Source of the DNA: a virus
IMG/VR virus record: IMGVR_UViG_3300033145_000380
Coordinates: 1 to 36,546 of that record
DNA: 36,546 bases
Direction: 5' to 3' (one strand)
Position numbers and translations under genes: made by a program. Shown piece after piece: positions 3,317-33,731 of this stretch (position 1 is the first letter of the stretch; every line of letters starts with the position of its first letter). The notes beneath the pieces were generated by a model that saw nothing but the letters and a program-made list of their open reading frames with translations, made no database searches and was not told where the DNA came from.

Positions 3317-3784
3317 ATGGACGTTGTTTATAAGGGCCATGACATAAAAATAGACAAGGGGGACTTGCCTCTTCTCCAAGCGCACAACTGGCAGGTGCAC
3401 AAGCATGTCCGCGGATCGTTCTACTTGGAAAGGATTGAAACGAACAACAAAAAGCACCAAGGCTTTGCTCTCCATCGGGTCGTCGCCGGAACCCCGGTCG
3501 GCATGATAACCGATCACATAAATCATAATACTCTCGATAACCGTAGGAAAAACCTGCGCGTCTGTTCTCACAGAGAAAATATGTTCAACCAAAAATCGAA
3601 AGTTGGGACCAGTAAATACAAAGGAGTTGGAATGTATAGAACCGGAAAGTGGCGGTCATACATATGTCAAAACCGGAAATATTATCATTTGGGATATTTT
3701 GAAAACGAAATCGATGCTGCAAAAGCATATGATATAGCGGCACGAAATATGTTTGGAGAATTTGCGGGGGTAAATTTTGCGTAA
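3317..3784 (+). CDS. HNH homing-type endonuclease with AP2 DNA-binding domain
   Basis: 155 residues. The HNH core is DHINHNTLDNRRKNLR (residues 66-81), with the first His of the DHINH pair as general base. The C-terminal AP2 domain (about 98-150) contains KYKGVGMYRTGKWRS, then a YFENEIDAAKAYD helix. HNH-AP2 proteins are free-standing mobile endonucleases common in phages. It sits between the helicase and the exonuclease, has its own promoter, and its stop overlaps the exonuclease start by a few bases. It may have inserted into the recombination operon, bringing or capturing a promoter. Family assignment is secure. Confidence 0.92.
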   Translation: MDVVYKGHDIKIDKGDLPLLQAHNWQVHKHVRGSFYLERIETNNKKHQGFALHRVVAGTPVGMITDHINHNTLDNRRKNLRVCSHRENMFNQKSKVGTSKYKGVGMYRTGKWRSYICQNRKYYHLGYFENEIDAAKAYDIAARNMFGEFAGVNFA

Positions 3785-20235: not shown

Positions 20236-20241
20236 GGGCAT

Positions 20242-20266
20242 AAAAAAACCCCGGATTTCTCCGGGG
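20242..20266 (-). terminator. rho-independent terminator of the IS110-like/array unit
   Basis: On the minus strand AACCCCGGA-GAAA-TCCGGGGTT forms a 9-bp stem with a GAAA loop followed by seven T. The last array unit runs directly into it with another GCGA. It is one of the strongest terminators in the window, making the array the 3' end of its transcript. Confidence 0.9.
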
Positions 20267-20271
20267 TTCGC

Positions 20272-20487
20272 TCGAAACGGCTGGGTTCCTTGTCTGGCGT
20301 GGCTCGCTTAACCTTTATGGGTTCCTTACTGAACCTGACTCGCTTATCGCGGCTGGGTTTCTTGTCATTAATGACTCGCTAGCCGGGAATGGTTTTCTTT
20401 TATGTTCTGGCTCGCTAGCACAACTTGGTTTCCTTCTGCTCCCTGGCTCGCTTCAATACGCTGGGTTCCTTATCGAGAATGACTAAC
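20272..20487 (-). repeat. array of six 36-bp units with two constant blocks and two variable segments
   Basis: Read on the minus strand, six units of exactly 36 bp lie end to end: 20452-20487, 20416-20451, 20380-20415, 20344-20379, 20308-20343 and 20272-20307. Each is GCGAGYCA, 8 variable bases, AAGRAAMCCA, 9 variable bases, then a constant A. The first unit starts GTTAGTCA and overlaps the stop codon TAG of the IS110-like gene. The 8-base segments are TTCTCGAT, GGGAGCAG, GAACATAA, TTAATGAC, GGTTCAGT, CGCCAGAC. The second segments are GCGTATTGA, AGTTGTGCT, TTCCCGGCT, GCCGCGATA, TAAAGGTTA, GCCGTTTCG. No two are alike. It is not a standard CRISPR because repeats and spacers are too short and alternate twice per unit. 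Frames across it contain stops, so it is not coding. It ends in a terminator, so it is transcribed as a 3' RNA. A two-segment guide role is inferred from the IS110-like neighbour. Confidence 0.9.
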
Positions 20488-21394
20488 TAATCTTCCATCC
20501 CCTTTCTGCGGGGAGAATTATTCCTTGATGTCCTAGCCGTTCCTCAACGTACAACGGCGTGGTATCCAATCCCCGCGCCGTCCTGCCGACCATCCAATAA
20601 TCAGCCAGGATATGCTTCATCACTGCCCGGAGGGCGGCACCGTGTCGATGGCATGGTTTCGTGTCCTTCCACATAACCTCGACTAGCTTACCCTGAGTGT
20701 TCCTTGACTTCACTATTTTTTCGCTAACTGAAAGCCGGTCCTTTGTGCGGTCGTAGACTTCCCGATAAGCGCCGCGTGTTTTCATCATTGAATCGGCGGT
20801 TCTCCATAGCGCAGTTCTCAGTGTCTTATTCCCGCCGCCAGCCTCGCCTTTCGTGTACCGATCTCCTGCCGCACAATGCAATCCCGCATAACTCCACAAA
20901 GAGGAGGCGTGTCTTGCTTTTTCGAGATCCACATACACGGTAAGATACGCTATGGTCATTTTCCCCAAACCGTGAACATTCATAGCCATGTCAATGATAG
21001 TATCGTCTTTGCGATGTGCCGTTACCCATGTATCGATACTTTTCTCTGCGGCTACCAGTAGAGGCAGGATTTCATCGACCGCGTTACCCAGGTGTTCCTT
21101 GGTTTCCGGCCTTTCGTAATCGGTGCGGCGTTCAAACGATAGGAGTTGATTCTGAATTTTGTTTTTCAGTTTCATCAACTGTTCCCGGTCGTCTACTAAC
21201 GCTTTCAATTCATCATGGTCCTCTTCCCGGAGGCGCAAAGTACCATGAAGCTCCATGTGTTCAATCGGGTCAACTACGTCGTAATTGTCCGATTCATACG
21301 TCCCGCCATTCGCTTTTGGGTTTAGGCGGTGCGTGTCTTTTAGCGGTAAGTCAGTTGTGACTCCTTTCGCTATTTTTAATATTTCTTTTGCCAT
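20483..21394 (-). CDS. IS110-family-like protein with Transposase_20-type C-terminal domain, lacking the RuvC half
   Basis: 303 residues, ATG 21394. Residues about 1-60 are unlike transposases (TYESDNYDVVDPIEHMELHG), 60-130 are helical coiled coil, and about 132-267 match the IS116/IS110/IS902 C-terminal domain: helix-hairpin-helix VHGLGKMTIAYL, then SSLWSYAGL (164-172), GGGNKTLRTALW (186-197) and HGAALRAVMKHILADYW (251-267). The IS110 N-terminal DEDD (RuvC-like) domain is missing. The usual catalytic Ser region before GNxxLR is shorter and has no Ser (AAGDRYTKGEAGGGNK), so normal recombination activity is doubtful. Its stop lies inside the first unit of the array. A promoter abuts its ATG and a terminator ends the unit. 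It probably binds the array RNA; that is inference. Confidence 0.85.
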   Translation of the reverse strand: MAKEILKIAKGVTTDLPLKDTHRLNPKANGGTYESDNYDVVDPIEHMELHGTLRLREEDHDELKALVDDREQLMKLKNKIQNQLLSFERRTDYERPETKEHLGNAVDEILPLLVAAEKSIDTWVTAHRKDDTIIDMAMNVHGLGKMTIAYLTVYVDLEKARHASSLWSYAGLHCAAGDRYTKGEAGGGNKTLRTALWRTADSMMKTRGAYREVYDRTKDRLSVSEKIVKSRNTQGKLVEVMWKDTKPCHRHGAALRAVMKHILADYWMVGRTARGLDTTPLYVEERLGHQGIILPAERGWKIS

Positions 21395-21401
21395 GTATTA
21401 T

Positions 21402-21430
21402 AATGTAATACCGTACCACGCCAAAATCAA
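21402..21430 (-). promoter_or_regulatory. promoter of the IS110-like/array unit, leaderless geometry
   Basis: Minus-strand TTGATT (21425-21430) and TACATT (21402-21407) with a 17-bp spacer. The -10 box ends seven bases before ATG 21394 (bases 21395-21401), so the mRNA should begin at the start codon. There is no ribosome binding site. The TACATT box matches the early rightward promoters, unlike the late-gene surroundings. The -35 overlaps the stop codon of the minor head gene (21427). Confidence 0.65.
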
Positions 21431-25904: not shown

Positions 25905-25942
25905 AGCCCCCGGCTAAACTGGGTCCGGGGGCTGCTTTTTTT
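25905..25942 (+). terminator. rho-independent terminator
   Basis: AGCCCCCGG (25905-25913) pairs with CCGGGGGCT (25925-25933), 9 bp, then GC and seven T. It ends the inverted small gene. The T-run touches the last base of the DUF115 stop codon on the other strand, so little bases are left between the two convergent genes. Confidence 0.9.
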
Positions 25943-27431
25943 ATTCTTTGTTTTTATTCCACGCTATCAGCTGCCGAACGCGTCGCATATTTTTGTCAAT
26001 GTCAACCGAATGTTTCTTCTCCAGCTTTCCTTCTTTGCAGTTGGGGCATTCATCGCCTGAGTGATCCTTGCCATCATTGGGCATGGCTTCTATTCCGCAT
26101 TTCGCGCAAGTCAATTTCGTATTCATCTGGACCATAAAATTATTCAGTTCGATTTCCGGGTTCTCACTTTCGATAAAATTGTATCCTACGGGATCGTCTG
26201 CCGTTTCGATAACGTAGCAGCCGATGCTGGCCAGGTACCGATCCGCATGTTTATGTACCCATTCCTGTTTTCGCTTGGTGCCTTTCCTGCCTTGAGTGAG
26301 CACGACTTTATTCACGTCCATGTAGGGCATTTCGGTAATCGTGCCGTGGTCCGTGGTATACGCCGAACTCCCGAGTAGCCGCCATGCCGAGATCATATTT
26401 TTCTTGTAGAAATTCATAATCTTGGTTGAATGTAGTCCGTTATTACTCATGACGGGCTTGTCTTGGTTCCGGCGGATCTCTTCCGGCGTGGGCGGTACGA
26501 ACGGGTGAATATGTTCTTCCCACTCGCACGGTATCACTACCGGAGGTGCATTCCCGCCCAGTTCTGCCACGGTTTCCGGTGTTTTGACCGTGTAGCTGGT
26601 AAACCTTGATTTGCCCGAATGGAACCCAAAGTCACAACCGGCGAGAAACATAACGCCGTACCCGAGGCGGTCGGCAGCAAACAACTGCAACGGCGGGCTA
26701 CAGGCGAAGATTGTAACCTCGGTACGTATCAGCATATTGAATATGGCCTTGTTTCGATCCCCGACCCGTTCGGAATACATATTCCGCTGTGTGGTAGCAT
26801 AAAACGAATCGGGCCTTCCGGAATTCTGCCGGTACAGGAGTATGTCATTCGGCCATTTCTCGATCAGATCCGGCCATACTCCCGGATGCGTGATAAGTTT
26901 AGTCCTGGTACGCGACCAGTTATAACCCTCAACTTCGGCCCAACTCTCGAACGGATCGAGTGCCACAATGTGAGTCGGTTCTATGCCGTGATACACCAGC
27001 GAGAGGGCATGAGAAGGCGAGCAGATAATCCCGCCTTGCCACAATTTCAGCGCCGGCATTGCATCGTCCAGGCTAGGCCCCGATCCGATGATGAAACACG
27101 GCACACCGCCAACCTTCGGTTCGTCGTTCAGATCCCTTGCGCGGCCGTCGGCAATCAGCCGGCGGATGGTATGCAGGTTCACCCCGGAATTATATTCCTC
27201 GTGGATAAGCTGCTTAGTAGCTGTCCCGGCGTTGTATGTGTCCGAATTGCTTCGGATACTGGACTCGTTGTGCATGTCGTTAATTGTTTCTACGATTTCT
27301 GTTTCGGGCCTGCCAAGTTCTTTTTTCAACGCGGCGTTCTCGTTTTGTAGTCTTTCTACCCCGTCGCCGATAGTGTCCAGTTTCGAGAGAATGACTTCCC
27401 CCTTTTCTTCAACGCTACTTTTCTTTGCCAT
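25941..27431 (-). CDS. DUF115 (MptE/Maf-like) protein with C-terminal zinc ribbon
   Basis: 496 residues, ATG 27431 with GGAGG twelve bases upstream, overlapping the cytidylyltransferase end by 17 bases. Residues about 110-160 give PCFIIGSGPSLDDAMPALK, then a SPSHALSLVYHGIEP helix and IVALDPFES, the DUF115 signature (GSGPSLD at 116-122). Family members are Maf-like flagellin glycosylation factors and MptE. The C-terminus has a four-Cys zinc ribbon (TCAKCG, then DECPNCKEG). Next to a CMP-sugar synthetase a nonulosonic-acid transferase role is attractive, but inferred. The N-terminal coiled coil (10-45) is an addition. Confidence 0.75.
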   Translation of the reverse strand: MAKKSSVEEKGEVILSKLDTIGDGVERLQNENAALKKELGRPETEIVETINDMHNESSIRSNSDTYNAGTATKQLIHEEYNSGVNLHTIRRLIADGRARDLNDEPKVGGVPCFIIGSGPSLDDAMPALKLWQGGIICSPSHALSLVYHGIEPTHIVALDPFESWAEVEGYNWSRTRTKLITHPGVWPDLIEKWPNDILLYRQNSGRPDSFYATTQRNMYSERVGDRNKAIFNMLIRTEVTIFACSPPLQLFAADRLGYGVMFLAGCDFGFHSGKSRFTSYTVKTPETVAELGGNAPPVVIPCEWEEHIHPFVPPTPEEIRRNQDKPVMSNNGLHSTKIMNFYKKNMISAWRLLGSSAYTTDHGTITEMPYMDVNKVVLTQGRKGTKRKQEWVHKHADRYLASIGCYVIETADDPVGYNFIESENPEIELNNFMVQMNTKLTCAKCGIEAMPNDGKDHSGDECPNCKEGKLEKKHSVDIDKNMRRVRQLIAWNKNKE

Positions 27432-28215
27432 ATTCGTAATAAACCTCCGGGCCTCGGCCCTTTAATATTTTGTGTTCCATGAACAATTCCACCATCTCTA
27501 AATCCTGATCATCGTCTATGTCATAAGTCTGCCACGCCCGACACGGCACGTAATACAACATCGCAGTACCGAGGATCATTGCATAAGTGACAATATCCCC
27601 GTCAACCTCGTCGTCCTTTATCGCCGTGGACTCGAAGTACCATTCTACCTTCCTGTTCGATTCCCGGTACCTGTCGGCCCACATGATATTCATGGCACCA
27701 GCCGGGATGATAGCCTTTTTACTCTTGTCAACATAGTGCATTATGCAGATTTTTTCTTCCGGCTTCCGTATCCGTCGGTACGAAACTACTTCCTGGACCT
27801 CTGCGCCCAGGACCACCTGCTTGCCGACTCCAATAGGCATATCCTCGGCCTCCTGGAAACGTTCATACAAACGGTCTATGTCATCGGGAAACAGCAACGG
27901 GCTCGTTGCCAATTTGCACAGAAACGGCTCATGTGTGGTATGAAGATCTAGAACGTCGAGCGCGTGTTCAAACGGCACGTTTGCCGCGAACGCCTTATCC
28001 TGTAACCATCCCGGCCGCCAAATAATCTTCGCGCCGTACTGTTCACATATCTCCGCGATTTCGGGCGACTCGGTACTGACATACACCTCATCGATACAAT
28101 GGGCAGCCTTTGCTTGGATGACCGACCACGCTACAAGGGGAATCCCGCAGATTTCCCTGAATGCCTTACGCGGTAGCCTGACTGATGTCGCATGCTGTGG
28201 GATAATGCAGATCAT
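27415..28215 (-). CDS. CMP-sugar synthetase (acylneuraminate/KDO cytidylyltransferase family)
   Basis: 266 residues, ATG 28215, overlapping the upstream gene by 4 bases. The N-terminus has the cytidylyltransferase pattern: IIPQHATSVRLPRKAFREIC with the RLPRK nucleotide loop (14-18), then GIPLVAWSVIQAK and VYVSTESPEIAEICEQYGAK. Such enzymes activate sialic, legionaminic or pseudaminic acids, or KDO, with CTP. I cannot tell which sugar. Its coupling to the DUF115 gene suggests the two modify a glycan or protein, possibly a host surface structure. Length is slightly longer than the family minimum. Confidence 0.85.
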   Translation of the reverse strand: MICIIPQHATSVRLPRKAFREICGIPLVAWSVIQAKAAHCIDEVYVSTESPEIAEICEQYGAKIIWRPGWLQDKAFAANVPFEHALDVLDLHTTHEPFLCKLATSPLLFPDDIDRLYERFQEAEDMPIGVGKQVVLGAEVQEVVSYRRIRKPEEKICIMHYVDKSKKAIIPAGAMNIMWADRYRESNRKVEWYFESTAIKDDEVDGDIVTYAMILGTAMLYYVPCRAWQTYDIDDDQDLEMVELFMEHKILKGRGPEVYYEYGKEK

Positions 28216-28646
28216 TTTTTAGCCGTTTTCGGTTTCGGCTTGTCGGCCTTCGGTTCGGGCGCGTCCGGTTCCTGGATTGGTTCGGGGATCTCGTTGCCGA
28301 CCGAGATGATATACATACCGCCGCAGTGCGGACAGATGTGAAACCCGTCTACCGCCGCCTTGATCCAGTCTTTCTTCGGTGTAGCCGTCCCGCAGGCCAC
28401 ACACTTGAAATAATCATCGTTCTTGAATTTCTTCGCCATACCCAACTCCCATGTACTAGATTTTGATACCTTATTTCCAAGCATCACGAGCATAGAATCC
28501 ATGTGTTGCAACAATTTTCTCGCGATGGTTTTTTCCTCATCGGTTTGCCCGAATTGCGTTCCAAGATTCAAGGCTGTTTCCAAAGCATCCCACGCCATCG
28601 CCTTGATTACGTGCGTTTCGTTCGGTGTAATTTGGTGACTGCTCAT
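28212..28646 (-). CDS. zinc-ribbon protein between permease and cytidylyltransferase genes, 144 aa
   Basis: ATG 28646 with GGGAGGGG upstream, overlapping the MalG-like gene by 4 bases and the cytidylyltransferase by 4. The first 70 residues are helical (MAWDALETALNLGTQFGQTD), then a zinc ribbon: FKCVACGT and HICPHCGGM (CxxC and CxxC). The C-terminus is Pro/Lys-rich, PEPIQEPDAPEPKADKPKPK. I do not recognise it. It resembles phage zinc-ribbon proteins and ties the sugar module to the phage operon by overlaps. Confidence 0.65.
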   Translation of the reverse strand: MSSHQITPNETHVIKAMAWDALETALNLGTQFGQTDEEKTIARKLLQHMDSMLVMLGNKVSKSSTWELGMAKKFKNDDYFKCVACGTATPKKDWIKAAVDGFHICPHCGGMYIISVGNEIPEPIQEPDAPEPKADKPKPKTAKK

Positions 28647-29455
28647 TTCTCAACCCCTCCCAGGACAGTAGTAAAATACTTATTCGCAACCGCAAATATC
28701 AGAACCAGCGGCAGTAACAAAACAACACCCGCCGCCAAGGATTGCCCTATCGGATTCAGATTCGTCTCAGATCCGCCACCTCGCAGCATTACAGTTCGTG
28801 TAAGCCCGACAAGCAACGTCTGTACTCGCGGTCTCTGCAATACCAGCATTTGCCACATATAGTCTTGTAGGCTGGCAATCGCGGCGAACAGGGCAAGTGC
28901 TGTGATTATCGGCCTGGATACCGGCACCACAATTCGGGCAAGTATCTGTAGTTCAGTGGCACCGTCCATCCTCGCGGATTCAAGAATCGACCCCGGAACC
29001 GTAGAAAAAAAAGCCCGTGCCAGGAACATGCCAACCGGAGAAAACCCCGTGGCGAGAATTACGGCAGTCAACGTGCCGGACATACCGAGTTTATTTATCA
29101 CCACAAACAGCGGTACAATGATCGAGATCCGGGGTATCATAATCCCGGCAAGCAGAAACAGCCAGAGGACTCGCTGCGCCTTGAACTCGTAGAACGCGAA
29201 CGAGTACCCCGCCGATACCGACAATCCTACCGACAATGTTACTGACAACGCAACCGTCAATATCGTGTTGATTGCCCACCGTGGAACCGCGGACTGTCCG
29301 AGCAGCCTGCCGTAATTTTCCAGCGTAGGATCTTCCGGAAATATCCGGGGCGGCATCATCATGACACCGTAGGAATCCTGCAGGCTGCCGGTGAACATCC
29401 AGTAGACCGGCGCGAGGAGGAGGAGGAACAGGATTATTAGGATGGGGCGGGTCAC
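28643..29455 (-). CDS. sugar ABC transporter permease, MalG/UgpE type
   Basis: 270 residues, GTG 29455 overlapping the upstream permease stop by 4 bases. Six membrane segments are visible, the last being VLLLPLVLIFAVANKYF. The conserved EAA loop, which contacts the ATPase, is at about 159-182: ESARMDGATELQILARIVVP. Order and features match the second permease of CUT1 carbohydrate importers. No ATPase gene lies nearby, so it would need a host ATPase such as the shared MsmX/UgpC type. Finding a CUT1 permease inside a phage operon is unusual. Confidence 0.9.
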   Translation of the reverse strand: MTRPILIILFLLLLAPVYWMFTGSLQDSYGVMMMPPRIFPEDPTLENYGRLLGQSAVPRWAINTILTVALSVTLSVGLSVSAGYSFAFYEFKAQRVLWLFLLAGIMIPRISIIVPLFVVINKLGMSGTLTAVILATGFSPVGMFLARAFFSTVPGSILESARMDGATELQILARIVVPVSRPIITALALFAAIASLQDYMWQMLVLQRPRVQTLLVGLTRTVMLRGGGSETNLNPIGQSLAAGVVLLLPLVLIFAVANKYFTTVLGGVEK

Positions 29456-30261
29456 CCTTCAATCCTCCGTTTAACAATCGTCAATCCTGCAGTAACAGCC
29501 AGCAACACAACCGCCTGTGCCGATGCCAGCCCGAACCGCCCGAACTGAAATGCCTCGCGGTAGATATGAAATGTCACCGTTGCAGTATACGAATACGGCG
29601 CCAGGGCATAAATCGTTTCGAATATCTGCAGGCTGGCTATCATCGCCAACAACGTCACCAATGCCAGCATGGGCCTGAGTAACGGAACGATGATACTCCG
29701 CTTGATTCTCGCGCCGGTAGCCCCGTCCATCTTTGCCGCGTCGTACAGGCTGGTATCAATACCGAGAATACCAGCAAGGAGAATAATCGTGGTTCCTCCC
29801 AGTCCTGCCGTAACCACGATCAACGCGATTGCCGGAATCGCGGTTCCTGCCTGCGCGAACCATGCGATACTGTGTTTCCCCAACATCCAATTCACCGGTC
29901 CTTGACTATGGAAAATCCATCGCCATGATTGCGCGATGATAATCCCGGCCGCCAATGCCGGAACGTAGAATATAATCCTTACCGCGTCATGCCAGCATTT
30001 CCGGAAATTGAATACCGACAACGCAACCATGAGCGCGGTACCGGTTTGCCCGACAACCATAATCAGCATGTAGAACGCCGAGTTCAGCCATGACCGCATA
30101 AACGTAGAATCGGTAAACGCCTGGACATAATTCCCCATGCCGACAAATTCCGTTGTGATGAAATTCGTTTTCAACATCGAGTATTGAATCAGGGTAACAA
30201 TCGGCCATGCAGAGAACACAATAGCGAATAGTAGGGCCGGGGCGAGAAGGATGTATTTCAC
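29452..30261 (-). CDS. sugar ABC transporter permease, MalF/UgpA type
   Basis: 269 residues, GTG 30261 overlapping the upstream small gene by 4 bases. N-terminal signal-anchor helix (ILLAPALLFAIVFSAWPIV), six membrane segments, and the EAA loop at about 173-197: YDAAKMDGATGARIKRSIIV then PLLRP. It pairs with the next gene to form the transmembrane channel of a CUT1-type importer. Length is shorter than full MalF and typical of UgpA/MsmF. The sugar cannot be named from sequence alone. Confidence 0.9.
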   Translation of the reverse strand: MKYILLAPALLFAIVFSAWPIVTLIQYSMLKTNFITTEFVGMGNYVQAFTDSTFMRSWLNSAFYMLIMVVGQTGTALMVALSVFNFRKCWHDAVRIIFYVPALAAGIIIAQSWRWIFHSQGPVNWMLGKHSIAWFAQAGTAIPAIALIVVTAGLGGTTIILLAGILGIDTSLYDAAKMDGATGARIKRSIIVPLLRPMLALVTLLAMIASLQIFETIYALAPYSYTATVTFHIYREAFQFGRFGLASAQAVVLLAVTAGLTIVKRRIEG

Positions 30262-30539
30262 GAAAGACCGCCGTGAAAACGTTGATGTTCTGCTTCTAAC
30301 TCTGGATTGCTCCCTTTCTTCACAAAAAACGCATAACCAAATTCATCATGATTGTCCGCGAAGGCATACTTTACCAGTATTTTCTCTCCAAATACGTTAG
30401 CGGGAACCAGTCTTGCATCAACCGGTATTACTGCCGTGCCACTTGGCGTTGCCATTGTTTCACAAAAGAAGCCCTCCGTTGCTTTTACGTAATTGAGCAA
30501 GCCATGATCTATGTTTTCATCAAAATATTTATCGTACAT
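30258..30539 (-). CDS. small protein between binding protein and permease genes, 93 aa
   Basis: ATG 30539, stop overlapping the permease start by 4 bases (GTGA). Beginning MYDKYFDENIDHGLLNYVKA, it has a beta-rich middle (AVIPVDARLVPANVFGEKIL) and an alpha/beta end with FADNHDEFGYAFFVKKGSN. There are no membrane segments. A longer start at 30584 would run through the tRNA-like segment. I do not recognise the family. Coupling suggests co-function with the transporter, or a phage gene trapped in the operon. Confidence 0.5.
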   Translation of the reverse strand: MYDKYFDENIDHGLLNYVKATEGFFCETMATPSGTAVIPVDARLVPANVFGEKILVKYAFADNHDEFGYAFFVKKGSNPELEAEHQRFHGGLS

Positions 30540-30540
30540 A

Positions 30541-30565
30541 CGGCACTCGCGGGAGTCGAACCCGC
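30541..30565 (-). other. tRNA 3'-end-like segment (T-arm plus acceptor strand)
   Basis: On the minus strand GCGGG-TTCGACT-CCCGC (30549-30565) is a perfect T-arm with the TTCGANT loop consensus, followed by GAGTGCCG, an acceptor-like strand. No D-arm or proper 5' acceptor partner lies at the right distance (the best upstream partner gives a molecule about 57 nt long), so it is not a full tRNA. Such fragments are typical of phage attachment sites in tRNA genes, or of remnants carried with captured host DNA. It touches the start codon at 30539. Confidence 0.45.
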
Positions 30566-30598
30566 AGACCCGGCTAAATCTCATTGCCTGTCAGCGCC

Positions 30599-30673
30599 AA
30601 AAATCGGGATAGGATGTATGAAGGGGAGAACGTCTACCCACCCCTTTGTTACCTCCGGGGCATCCCATCCCGA
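30599..30673 (-). terminator. long hairpin terminator or stabiliser after the binding-protein gene
   Basis: On the minus strand 13 bases (30661-30673) pair with 13 bases (30604-30616), one G-U, and five T follow (30599-30603). The 44-nt loop can form CCCC/GGGG sub-hairpins. It starts six bases after the stop of the binding protein. Partial termination here would give more binding protein than permease, as seen in other sugar ABC operons. Confidence 0.6.
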
Positions 30674-30678
30674 ACAAA

Positions 30679-31968
30679 TTACTTCAATGCTTCGTTCAGT
30701 GCTTTCTCATATGCGGCAATCGAATCAGCAGGTGTCATTTCCATGTTTAGGACTCTCTGCAGTACAGGAAAATGCTGTGCTCTCGCGGCCATGTACCTCG
30801 GATTGGTAATGCCGACATCGAACAGCCCGTTGCTTCTCACAATACCCTGGATCTGTGCCGTCCATTCGTCGGTAGGTGAAACCGTAACGTCTTTCCGATT
30901 GGCAAGTACGCCCTGAATCAGAACCGCCGCCGTCTGTATCTCTGCCGAGTTCAGATATTCAACCATCCTCGCTGCCACGGCATCCTCGTCGGTCCCGGTT
31001 TCATGTACAACCATCGCGGCGCAGGAATTATACGTCGGTACAAAATCAACTCCTGGTCCGCGGGGAAACGGCACAAACTTATAATCAAACGGCGCATATC
31101 CCTGTTTGGCTACTACGTCGAAATACGGCTTGATCCACGGCTGGAAAAACGCGGTAGCTGCCAAGTCGCCCTTTGCCCAATCGAGGACATAATCATCATC
31201 CACCTGTGTCGCGGCGTCACCCCGAATGTACCCTTCGTGCATGAGTAGCTGGAAAAACTCGTGAACCGCAGCACCGCCGGTCGAGGCAATCGTAGTTTTC
31301 GAGTAATCCCCGGACGCGTAGAAATCAGCACCGAAGGCAGCAAACCAGTTGTTAATCAGATAATCACCGGACATATTGCCGGCAAACATCCCGGTTGCCC
31401 ATTTTGAACCACCGTATTTCTGTTTTACCAGTTCGGCCATTTCGAGGAAGTCGGCAATGGTCCAGTTATCGGGAACGTCATAACCGATATCGGCCATGAG
31501 CTCTAGATTGATTGCCATGCCTTGAGCAGATCCAGGTTGAGGCAACGCAAGCAGATTCCCGTTCCGGCGATACGGCGCAAGAGTTTCAACAGGATACTGG
31601 TCGAGGTCATGGACGAACCTATCCAGCGGAAGGGCATAATCGGCCACAATGTACGATGAAGCACGGCCTATGTAGTCCATGTAGACATTCGGCGCCTGCC
31701 CCGATGCGAGTAGCGCGGTCATCGTCATCGCCGAACCATCCGCCAGGTCAATCTGCAACTCGGTTATTGTTGCCCCAGGAAAATCTTCCTTGACCCGCGA
31801 AATTGCCCATCCGATATTCGTGCCGAGATCGCCGAGATCCGCGACGCCTGAATACAGGATGGAAATCTCGATTGGGGTAGGTGCCTCCGCGTCTACTTCA
31901 GCGCTTGGCGCCGCGAATACTGCCGCAGCCAACAGAATGAAGAGAAAAAATGTAAAAATCTGTTTCAT
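30679..31968 (-). CDS. extracellular solute-binding protein of a sugar ABC transporter
   Basis: 429 residues, ATG 31968 with AAGGAG. Signal peptide MKQIFTFFLFILLAAAVFAA (no lipobox Cys, so signal peptidase I, cleavage near VFA/APS), typical of Gram-negative periplasmic binding proteins. Mature part has the family-1 (CUT1) fold: IEISILYSG strand, GSAMTMTALLASGQAPNVYM, LPLDRF, NWTIADFLEMAELVKQKYG, GDLAATAFFQPWIKPYFD and WTAQIQGIVRSNG. It should capture a sugar or oligosaccharide and deliver it to the two permeases. It has its own promoter upstream and a hairpin downstream. Confidence 0.9.
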   Translation of the reverse strand: MKQIFTFFLFILLAAAVFAAPSAEVDAEAPTPIEISILYSGVADLGDLGTNIGWAISRVKEDFPGATITELQIDLADGSAMTMTALLASGQAPNVYMDYIGRASSYIVADYALPLDRFVHDLDQYPVETLAPYRRNGNLLALPQPGSAQGMAINLELMADIGYDVPDNWTIADFLEMAELVKQKYGGSKWATGMFAGNMSGDYLINNWFAAFGADFYASGDYSKTTIASTGGAAVHEFFQLLMHEGYIRGDAATQVDDDYVLDWAKGDLAATAFFQPWIKPYFDVVAKQGYAPFDYKFVPFPRGPGVDFVPTYNSCAAMVVHETGTDEDAVAARMVEYLNSAEIQTAAVLIQGVLANRKDVTVSPTDEWTAQIQGIVRSNGLFDVGITNPRYMAARAQHFPVLQRVLNMEMTPADSIAAYEKALNEALK

Positions 31969-31987
31969 GTAATACTCCTTGCCTGAA

Positions 31988-32016
31988 TGATAATGCCCGA
32001 TGTATATGACATTCAA
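31988..32016 (-). promoter_or_regulatory. promoter of the ABC transporter operon
   Basis: Minus-strand TTGAAT (32011-32016) and TTATCA (31988-31993), spacer 17 bp, with AAGGAG before ATG 31968. The spacer contains GTCATATACAT, close to the nearby CATATGACA-like half, but no clear operator is visible. Confidence 0.55.
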
Positions 32017-32036
32017 GACCAAACGTGTCATATTCT

Positions 32037-32126
32037 TCACCGGCAAATTATCAACGTGACCAGCACCAACAGCACCATCGCACACAATTCCCACATGATT
32101 ATTTTTTGGTATAGTTTTAGTTTCAT
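32037..32126 (-). CDS. tiny single-membrane-helix protein, 29 aa
   Basis: ATG 32126 overlaps the upstream stop (ATGA). The protein is a short start MKLKLYQK followed by one hydrophobic helix (about 9-28, IIMWELCAMVLLVLVTLIIC). Single-helix peptides of this kind are common in phages as small membrane factors. No ribosome binding site is needed if coupled. Without homologs this remains a candidate. Confidence 0.45.
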   Translation of the reverse strand: MKLKLYQKIIMWELCAMVLLVLVTLIICR

Positions 32127-32371
32127 GACGCCGCCACAATCCGCTGCACCTGCCGAAGTGACATACCGGACTCTTCGGCACACCGCTGATACGCACTCAT
32201 ACAAGTAGCCCCATCGTTTAAGGACTCCGAAAATAAAGTGATGATAACATTGTTTCTCGTGGGGTCCGGCACCTGGTGCGGCATGTACAAATGCTGTCCG
32301 TGATAATGATTAACAAGTTTCTGAAATGCGTCCTTCCCGATTAAAGAAAGGATATGTTCTGCCTGGTTCAT
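32123..32371 (-). CDS. Mor/HTH-like transcription regulator, 82 aa
   Basis: ATG 32371 with GGAG nearby. N-terminal MNQAEHILSLIGKDAFQKLV and a middle YMPHQVPDPTRNNVIITLFS, then a C-terminal helix-turn-helix: AYQRCAEESGMSLRQVQRIV. The C-terminal helices resemble the Mor activator family (phage Mu middle transcription) and similar small HTH proteins. It precedes the ABC operon, so it may control it or the late genes. It overlaps the preceding gene by 62 bases. Confidence 0.55.
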   Translation of the reverse strand: MNQAEHILSLIGKDAFQKLVNHYHGQHLYMPHQVPDPTRNNVIITLFSESLNDGATCMSAYQRCAEESGMSLRQVQRIVAAS

Positions 32372-32546: not shown

Positions 32547-32893
32547 ATTTCCCCTCTGGCCTTTTTATTTCTGGCAACTTTCATCAGCACAATTTCCATA
32601 AGCTGCCCGACCTCGACCTTCATGTCTCTTGCGCCTGGTTCTGGTAATGCAGGACGATATGGTTTTATTTCATCAGGGTCCGGCCTGATGTCTTTCCTAG
32701 CGACTTCCAGGGTAGCAACATCTGGCGTGAAATTATATTGCGTCGAGAATGCGCGTATCAAGTAATTGGATAATTTATCCAGGTTGTATTCTGGAATAGT
32801 TAGAATATATTCCCCCACCGCCCTACGAAGCCCCGGACGTGGGTACTTTCCGTAATACTCTTCAAGCCATACAAAAAACTCTTTATGATTCAT
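32543..32893 (-). CDS. replication-associated phage protein, 116 aa
   Basis: ATG 32893 with GGAGGAAATATTTC upstream, overlapping the preceding replication gene end by 11 bases. N-terminal HKEFFVWLEEYYGKYPRPGL, then a helical segment ILTIPEYNLDKLSNYLIRAF with QYNFTPDVATLEVARKDIRP. Small helical proteins at this position after an initiator can act as helicase loaders (lambda P/DnaI-like), but no ATP-binding motif is present. Assignment is by context only. Confidence 0.5.
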   Translation of the reverse strand: MNHKEFFVWLEEYYGKYPRPGLRRAVGEYILTIPEYNLDKLSNYLIRAFSTQYNFTPDVATLEVARKDIRPDPDEIKPYRPALPEPGARDMKVEVGQLMEIVLMKVARNKKARGEI

Positions 32894-33731
32894 GAAATAT
32901 TTCCTCCAACATTTTATCATCATCCACGTTCTTCATCTCTTCAGTTTTGAGATGTTCTCGAACACGCGTCCACAGAGAAACAAGTGTAGTAGGCAAGAAC
33001 GGCTGTGTTCTCCAGAATCCCTTCTTTGAATCGTCATCCTCTTTTAACTCACGAAATTTTTTCATCATAGCCTGAAGCACTACCTCGGGTTCGCCTGCGT
33101 CCGAAGAAAGTTTATACAGTCGATTGATTGCGTCAACTTGTTTTGTGTTGTCGGGAAGGAAGGTTCCGTAAACGGTCTCGAATGTTTTGTATGCTGCTTG
33201 GCAGAGTTTTTGATTATTTGAAAATACGCGCACTTTCCCACTCCTGTTTGTGTCTGTGTTAAGGTTACTGTCTATATCTAGTCTGGCTCTAGATAGTTCA
33301 AGGGGCTTATAAGGGGCTTCAAGGGGCTTCAAGGGCCTTATTACTTCGGAAAGGTACTTATACCGATAATTGATGTCGTGAACCGCTTCCCATATTTCTT
33401 CCGGCAGTTCGAGAAGTACCGCGTCAATTCCTTTACGGCAGTTATCGCGTTCTGAAACTCTTTGATGCTTCGGCCACGAAGGAATAATCAACCATTCGCC
33501 ACGCCGATATACCTTTTTTTCTTGTTCAAAGAATTCCCACATATCGAGTATTTCTTTAGAGGAAAAACCAGTATCAAAAGAAATACGCCGATTAGTTATC
33601 TGGTAGATCCCGGCGATATTTGTCAGTGGATTCGACAGCAGGTACAGATAGAATAACTTCTGTAGTTTGGTTGCTTCCTGAACCCATTCGTCATCCCAAA
33701 AACTAGTAGAGATATAGCGTTGTTTTCCCAT
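32883..33731 (-). CDS. phage replication initiation protein (DnaD/O-like)
   Basis: 282 residues, ATG 33731. N-terminal winged-helix region starts MGKQRYISTSFWDDEWVQEA and LQKLFYLYLLSNPLTNIAGI, then EGYW-like wing (GEWLIIPSWPKHQRVSERDN). This wing-helix start is typical of phage initiators fused to DnaD-type C-terminal parts. The middle (RPLKPLEAPYKPLEL) is encoded by a direct repeat that could be origin iterons, as in lambda O. It probably binds and opens the origin and recruits the host helicase. Confidence 0.75.
   Translation of the reverse strand: MGKQRYISTSFWDDEWVQEATKLQKLFYLYLLSNPLTNIAGIYQITNRRISFDTGFSSKEILDMWEFFEQEKKVYRRGEWLIIPSWPKHQRVSERDNCRKGIDAVLLELPEEIWEAVHDINYRYKYLSEVIRPLKPLEAPYKPLELSRARLDIDSNLNTDTNRSGKVRVFSNNQKLCQAAYKTFETVYGTFLPDNTKQVDAINRLYKLSSDAGEPEVVLQAMMKKFRELKEDDDSKKGFWRTQPFLPTTLVSLWTRVREHLKTEEMKNVDDDKMLEEIFHES
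33275..33337. other. origin-like region: inverted repeat plus four direct repeats
   Basis: TATCTAG/CTAGATA flank a 7-base loop (33275-33295). Directly after lie four near-copies of TTCAAGGGGC at 33297-33306, 33307-33317 (11 bp, ATA variant), 33318-33327 and 33328-33337. They lie inside the initiator gene, as origins do in lambda-type phages. Candidate only. Confidence 0.4.

What the first reader, a model, noticed from the sequence alone, without database searches (positions are those of the whole stretch)
20236..21430. IS110-like protein linked to an array of six 36-bp two-segment units: possible guide-RNA array in a phage
Six units of exactly 36 bp follow the IS110-like gene, beginning inside its stop codon region. 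Each has two constant blocks (GCGAGYCA and AAGRAAMCCA) and two different variable segments of 8 and 9 nt. IS110 recombinases use a bridge RNA with paired guide segments, so a protein with their C-terminal domain beside an RNA with two variable segments per unit suggests a multi-unit, two-part guide array. The variable segments are all different, the constant blocks are nearly fixed, and the array ends in a strong terminator. I know of no described system with this form. Function (targeting rival phages, phage genome inversion, or gene control) is open.
Basis: partly seen in the sequence, partly recalled or inferred. Interest (0 to 1): 0.95.

Follow-up and report, generated by a model that had tools for sequence, protein, structure and literature searches.

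The report
Phage TIGR-TasH RNA-guided DNA nuclease
A phage carries a small protein and a six-unit array of paired guides that together belong to TIGR-Tas, a recently described kind of RNA-guided DNA-cutting system; it is a good, intact new member of that kind, not a new kind of system.

Summary
The locus is a TIGR-Tas system (Faure et al. 2025, PMC12045711), TasH subtype. The 303-aa protein passes NCBIfam's curated TIGR_Tas_endo cut-off (119 vs 100 bits), matches solved TasH by sequence (E 1e-98) and by predicted fold over its whole length (TM 0.88 to 9w04), and is 53.5% identical to Salicola phage CGphi29 SpTasH, the paper's TasH example. The array has the same anatomy as CGphi29's: 36-nt units, edge AGCGAGYCA, loop AAGRAAMCCA, two 8-nt spacers, partial end edges, terminator. 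A blind scan for the array pattern in IMG/VR returned 119 stretches; of 118 loci with at least three units, 96 encode a Tas protein, always on the array's strand and mostly touching it. The N-terminal HNH motif (D20, H22, R23, N37, H46, H50) is intact. Inference: paired-guide DNA cutting, probably against competing mobile DNA. I found no target: self-matches and exact IMG/VR matches are at mispaired-control level.

The parts
20483..21394 (-). tasH gene, 303 aa, TIGR-Tas RNA-guided endonuclease
21242..21343 (-). HNH (beta-beta-alpha metal) nuclease motif, residues about 18-51: D20, H22, R23, N37, H46, H50
   Evidence: alignment of 18 TasH relatives; predicted strands 20-23 and 38-41 and helix 43-49
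21015..21223 (-). long helical hairpin (residues about 58-126), the expected coiled-coil dimerisation region
   Evidence: helices 58-89 and 96-126 in the model; role by analogy to TasR in PMC12045711
20753..20983 (-). IS110-like C-terminal / Nop RNA-binding region core (PF02371 match, residues 138-214, sub-threshold)
   Evidence: (TIGR_Tas_endo covers residues 63-269)
20453..20488 (-). TIGR unit 1: degenerate edge AGTTAGTCA (overlaps the tasH stop), spacer A TTCTCGAT, loop AAGGAACCCA, spacer B GCGTATTG
20417..20452 (-). TIGR unit 2: spacers GGGAGCAG / AGTTGTGC
20381..20416 (-). TIGR unit 3: spacers GAACATAA / TTCCCGGC
20345..20380 (-). TIGR unit 4: spacers TTAATGAC / GCCGCGAT
20309..20344 (-). 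TIGR unit 5: spacers GGTTCAGT / TAAAGGTT
20273..20308 (-). TIGR unit 6: spacers CGCCAGAC / GCCGTTTC
20264..20272 (-). 3'-truncated edge repeat (AGCGA) closing the array
20242..20269 (-). intrinsic terminator, 10-bp stem plus T tail

Best explanation
This is a TIGR-TasH system carried by a tailed phage. [quoted passage not shown] A TasH dimer holds one tigRNA through the box C (YCA) and box D (AG) motifs of edge and loop. Spacer A pairs with one strand of a DNA target and spacer B with the other strand next to it; the two N-terminal HNH domains cut both strands. Shown here: the parts, their order, the fold, the family. Inferred from experiments on the 53.5%-identical SpTasH: processing, pairing rule, cutting. 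Not shown by anyone: what this phage's guides aim at; competing mobile elements are the most likely target.
For: NCBIfam equivalog TIGR_Tas_endo above its curated cut-off; phmmer E 9.5e-99 to PDB TasH; predicted model, pLDDT 87, aligns over its whole length to TasH-tigRNA-DNA cryo-EM structures, TM 0.88, and less well to TasR and IS621; 53.5% identity over 99% to CGphi29 SpTasH; CGphi29's array has edge AAGCGAGYCA, loop AAGACAACCA, 36-nt period and terminator; 96 of 118 independently found array loci encode a Tas protein, 96 of 96 on the same strand; HNH residues conserved in the window and in most TasH relatives; published biochemistry of SpTasH: 36-nt RNAs, HNH- and tigRNA-dependent cutting of DNA on both strands.
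Against: No expression or cutting data for this locus. No target found in the phage itself, in 1.1 Mb around related arrays, or above control level in IMG/VR. The position of the usual HNH general base is R23, not histidine, but the same arginine stands in SpTasH, which is active.
Confidence: 0.95

Rival explanations
1. TasH binds and cuts nothing in the wild but is a DNA-binding regulator: the paired guides park the protein on a target to block transcription or replication.
For: Most Tas proteins with this repeat type found here lack the HNH motif (81 of 98 profile hits, some of them fragments), so binding alone must be useful; some TasH relatives (L059, L065) have lost HNH residues.
Against: The window's HNH residues are all kept and the fold is predicted with confidence.
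Confidence: 0.1
2. The array is aimed at the phage's own genome, for gene control or genome processing.
For: Not excluded for poor matches; pairing tolerates mismatches at the spacer edges (PMC12045711).
Against: Own-genome matches are no better than for mispaired spacers, in either geometry; no same-locus excess in the other arrays. The window may lack part of the genome.
Confidence: 0.04
3. An IS110-family mobile element with a bridge-RNA-like array.
For: Weak match to PF02371, E 0.0013 below cut-off, and to NCBIfam transpos_IS110 at 29.5 bits against a cut-off of 140; fold similarity to IS621.
Against: The N-terminus is HNH, not DEDD; curated TIGR-Tas cut-off is passed, IS110 cut-off is not; a bridge RNA is one bipartite RNA, not a 36-nt array.
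Confidence: 0.01

Closest known systems
SpTIGR-TasH of Salicola phage CGphi29 (Faure et al. 2025; PDB 21kl, 9w02-9w04, 9vzx)
   Same: Protein family, HNH plus Nop architecture, strand and place of the array just downstream, edge repeat AGCGAGYCA, 36-nt period, 8-nt spacers, terminator; both genes sit among head genes.
   Different: 53.5% identity; loop AAGRAAMCCA instead of AAGACAACCA; 6 units instead of about 11; shorter N-terminus (lacks the stretch around HCEITGAPL); all spacers different; the rest of the two phage genomes is only distantly related.
TIGR-TasH locus L009 (IMGVR_UViG_3300005915_000106)
   Same: 74% identical TasH, same edge repeat and a similar loop.
   Different: 7 units upstream and 4 downstream of the gene, no shared spacer, and no other window protein matches the 12.6 kb held, so the cassette seems to move between unrelated phages.
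TIGR-TasR (PDB 9mty)
   Same: Nop domain, dimer, dual-spacer 36-nt tigRNA.
   Different: RuvC instead of HNH nuclease, UG/CCA repeats, 9-nt spacers; TM 0.54.
IS110/IS621 bridge-RNA recombinase
   Same: Related RNA-binding domain and two-part guide idea; TM 0.46.
   Different: DEDD recombinase domain, single bridge RNA, transposition.

Membership tests
TIGR-Tas | Tas protein with a Nop-type RNA-binding domain | tested here: met
   NF052498.1 TIGR_Tas_endo 119.3 bits, cut-off 100; TasH/TasR folds
[quoted passage not shown]
   six units; column information profile
TIGR-Tas | 5'- and 3'-truncated edge repeats at the ends and a terminator after the array | tested here: met
   the 5' edge is degenerate and overlaps the stop codon
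TIGR-Tas | Array processed into 36-nt tigRNAs bound by the protein | not testable with these tools
   shown for SpTasH in PMC12045711
TIGR-Tas | tigRNA-guided DNA targeting, one spacer per strand | not testable with these tools
   shown for TaTasR and SpTasH
TasH subtype | N-terminal HNH nuclease | tested here: met
   conserved D-x-H/D-R...GG...N...H...H motif and full-length alignment to TasH structure 9w04
IS110 recombinase | N-terminal DEDD (RuvC-like) recombinase domain | tested here: not met
   N-terminal 50 residues form an HNH-type fold; transpos_IS110 29.5 bits against 140

The most novel reading that the evidence does not exclude
The array is an actively renewed, transferable guide set used by phages against rival mobile DNA, and whole 36-nt units are swapped between phages although no adaptation genes are present. 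The window's TasH has a close relative in an apparently unrelated phage with an entirely different array, and in related TasA arrays identical units recur in scrambled order.
Probability: 0.25. Interest if true: 0.55.

Novelty: new member of a known kind. Interest (0 to 1): 0.25.

Why it matters
It adds an intact, compact TasH (303 aa) with its complete six-guide array and shows, by an array-first scan, that this repeat type is common in phages. The natural targets and the way arrays grow are open questions in the TIGR-Tas paper; collections of related arrays such as those fetched here are the material needed to answer them. The window alone does not answer them.

Tried and rejected
Self-targets in the window, with 9-nt and 8-nt spacers, two geometries, gaps 0-4: no better than mispaired spacers. 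Targets of 1505 distinct spacer pairs in 1.1 Mb of DNA around arrays: no excess at any gap clearly above within-array reshuffles. Exact [B]N0-2[rc A] sites in IMG/VR: 1, 3, 4 and 3 stretches for units 1, 2, 4 and 5 against 9 for one mispaired control; these scans demanded all 18 letters, possibly stricter than TasH needs. A spacer pair recurring in several TasA arrays (GAAGGACAT/TCCTTACRA) hit the start of a phage head gene exactly in three contigs (L147, L151, L163), but the contigs look like one phage, no other unit of those arrays hits them, and unrelated hits were as frequent as chance; not claimed. TasH relatives in one genome per bacterial or archaeal species: none, so host DNA could not be tested. 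A direct protein scan of viral contigs found nothing because its peptide patterns were too specific; the array pattern found the relatives instead. Rfam: no match in the window. PADLOC 2023: no match to the protein.

Full report
What was claimed.

The gene is the minus-strand ORF 20483-21394, 303 aa. Downstream lie six exact 36-nt units (20488 down to 20273), a truncated edge repeat and a 10-bp terminator stem with T tail. Period 36 at this place is the strongest periodicity in the window, 59% self-identity against at most 44% in 100 shuffles. The first edge repeat is degenerate and overlaps the stop codon.

What it is. The protein passes NCBIfam's TIGR_Tas_endo model above its curated cut-off. 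It matches the TasH chain of the Protein Data Bank with E 9.5e-99 and TasR with E 4.7e-10. Its AlphaFold2 model (mean pLDDT 87) aligns over its full length with TasH-tigRNA-DNA structures (TM 0.88), less well with TasR (0.54) and IS621 (0.46). The best relative among cultured phages is Salicola phage CGphi29, 53.5% identical over 99%; this is the locus that Faure et al. 2025 (PMC12045711) name as the TasH example. Its array, read here, has the same edge repeat, a loop that differs by about two bases, the same period and the same ending.

Association tested without circularity. Together with the window and CGphi29, 118 loci hold at least three units. A profile of TasH-type proteins finds a Tas protein in 96 of them, always on the array's strand, nearly always touching the array or within 75 bp. 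Most of the 22 others have the array within a few hundred bases of the end of the held DNA. In about 80 of 98 hits the HNH motif is absent by a simple pattern (solo-Nop TasA type, or fragments); about 17 have it, the window among them.

Anatomy. Over 199 units of 18 TasH-type loci, information falls to zero at exactly two 8-nt stretches (columns 10-17 and 28-35), and both repeats begin AG and end CA. This agrees with the 16 variable nt reported for SpTIGR and with box D/box C anchors placed symmetrically on a dimer. The HNH motif D-x-H/D-R ... GG ... N ... P-x-x-H-M-x-x-H is kept in the window; L059 and L065 have lost parts of it. The arginine at the usual general-base position is shared with SpTasH, which is reported to cut DNA in an HNH-dependent way.

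How it most likely works. By homology to SpTasH and TasR: processing to 36-nt tigRNAs in the edge repeat, a protein dimer on one tigRNA, spacer A on one DNA strand and spacer B on the other, cut 5' of the base that pairs with the fifth base after box C. From that cutting rule I derived that a target reads spacer B, 0-2 bases, reverse complement of spacer A; I also tested the opposite order. These steps are inferred for this locus, not shown.

Targets. None found. The window's own genome has no match beyond mispaired controls. All 1505 spacer pairs against 1.1 Mb of related viral DNA give no clear excess over within-array reshuffles. Exact sites in IMG/VR are at control level. The target and hence the biological role stay open, as in the original paper.

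Spread. The 74%-identical TasH in L009 sits in a contig with which the window shares no other recognisable gene in the 12.6 kb held, and the two arrays share no spacer. So the cassette appears to move between phages. Among TasA-type relatives, whole units recur in different arrays in scrambled order, which suggests exchange of units; the window's units are not among them.

Context. The gene lies between a Mu-F-like minor head gene and a scaffold gene, after portal and terminases, so this is the packaging/head module of a tailed phage.

Verdict. Already explained in kind: an intact new member of TIGR-TasH. Interest is modest.

Noticed in passing
window 25941-32196 (minus strand): Between the phage packaging genes and a DnaD-like helicase-loader gene (32883-33731) lie an MptE-like gene, a cytidylyltransferase (PseF-like), two sugar-type ABC transporter permeases and a solute-binding protein. 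A nearly complete ABC importer inside a phage genome is unusual; no ATPase was recognised.
   Followed up: partly
L038, L064, L090, L046, L112, L060, L047; L019, L028, L116; L021, L043, L027, L078: TIGR arrays of different IMG/VR contigs share whole units (both spacers) but in scrambled order and among many unshared units; one unit (GAAGGACAT/TCCTTACRA) occurs in seven arrays, with variants that differ at positions that could be synonymous in a coding target.
   Followed up: partly
L166 2342-2680 (Mycobacterium phage Tripl3t), L168 2620-2893 (Gordonia phage Morrissey), L169 2581-3022 (Rhodococcus phage Peregrin): Next to solo-Nop TasA-like genes lie rows of hairpins with about 30 nt between the arms, which look like TIGR stem-loop arrays; about 74 Mycobacterium phage records have a related gene. 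These phages are cultured with known hosts, so targets could be tested.
   Followed up: partly
L167 3675-4060 (Microcystis phage Mvi-JY20, PP438412.1): A dual-repeat 36-nt array (ATGCGAGCC / ACGAAACCC, about ten units, terminator) follows a Tas-like gene annotated as hypothetical.
   Followed up: partly
L059 10470-11420 and L065 3110-4027: TasH relatives with degenerate HNH motifs beside intact-looking arrays: natural loss of the nuclease.
   Followed up: no
L147, L151, L163: Exact 18-nt, gap-0 match of the recurring unit to the first codons of a phage head gene (MKDIRKDVV...); three contigs, probably one phage; not above chance on its own.
   Followed up: partly
window 3317-3784 (plus strand): HNH_3 plus AP2 homing-endonuclease-like gene between helicase and RecE-like exonuclease genes.
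   Followed up: no
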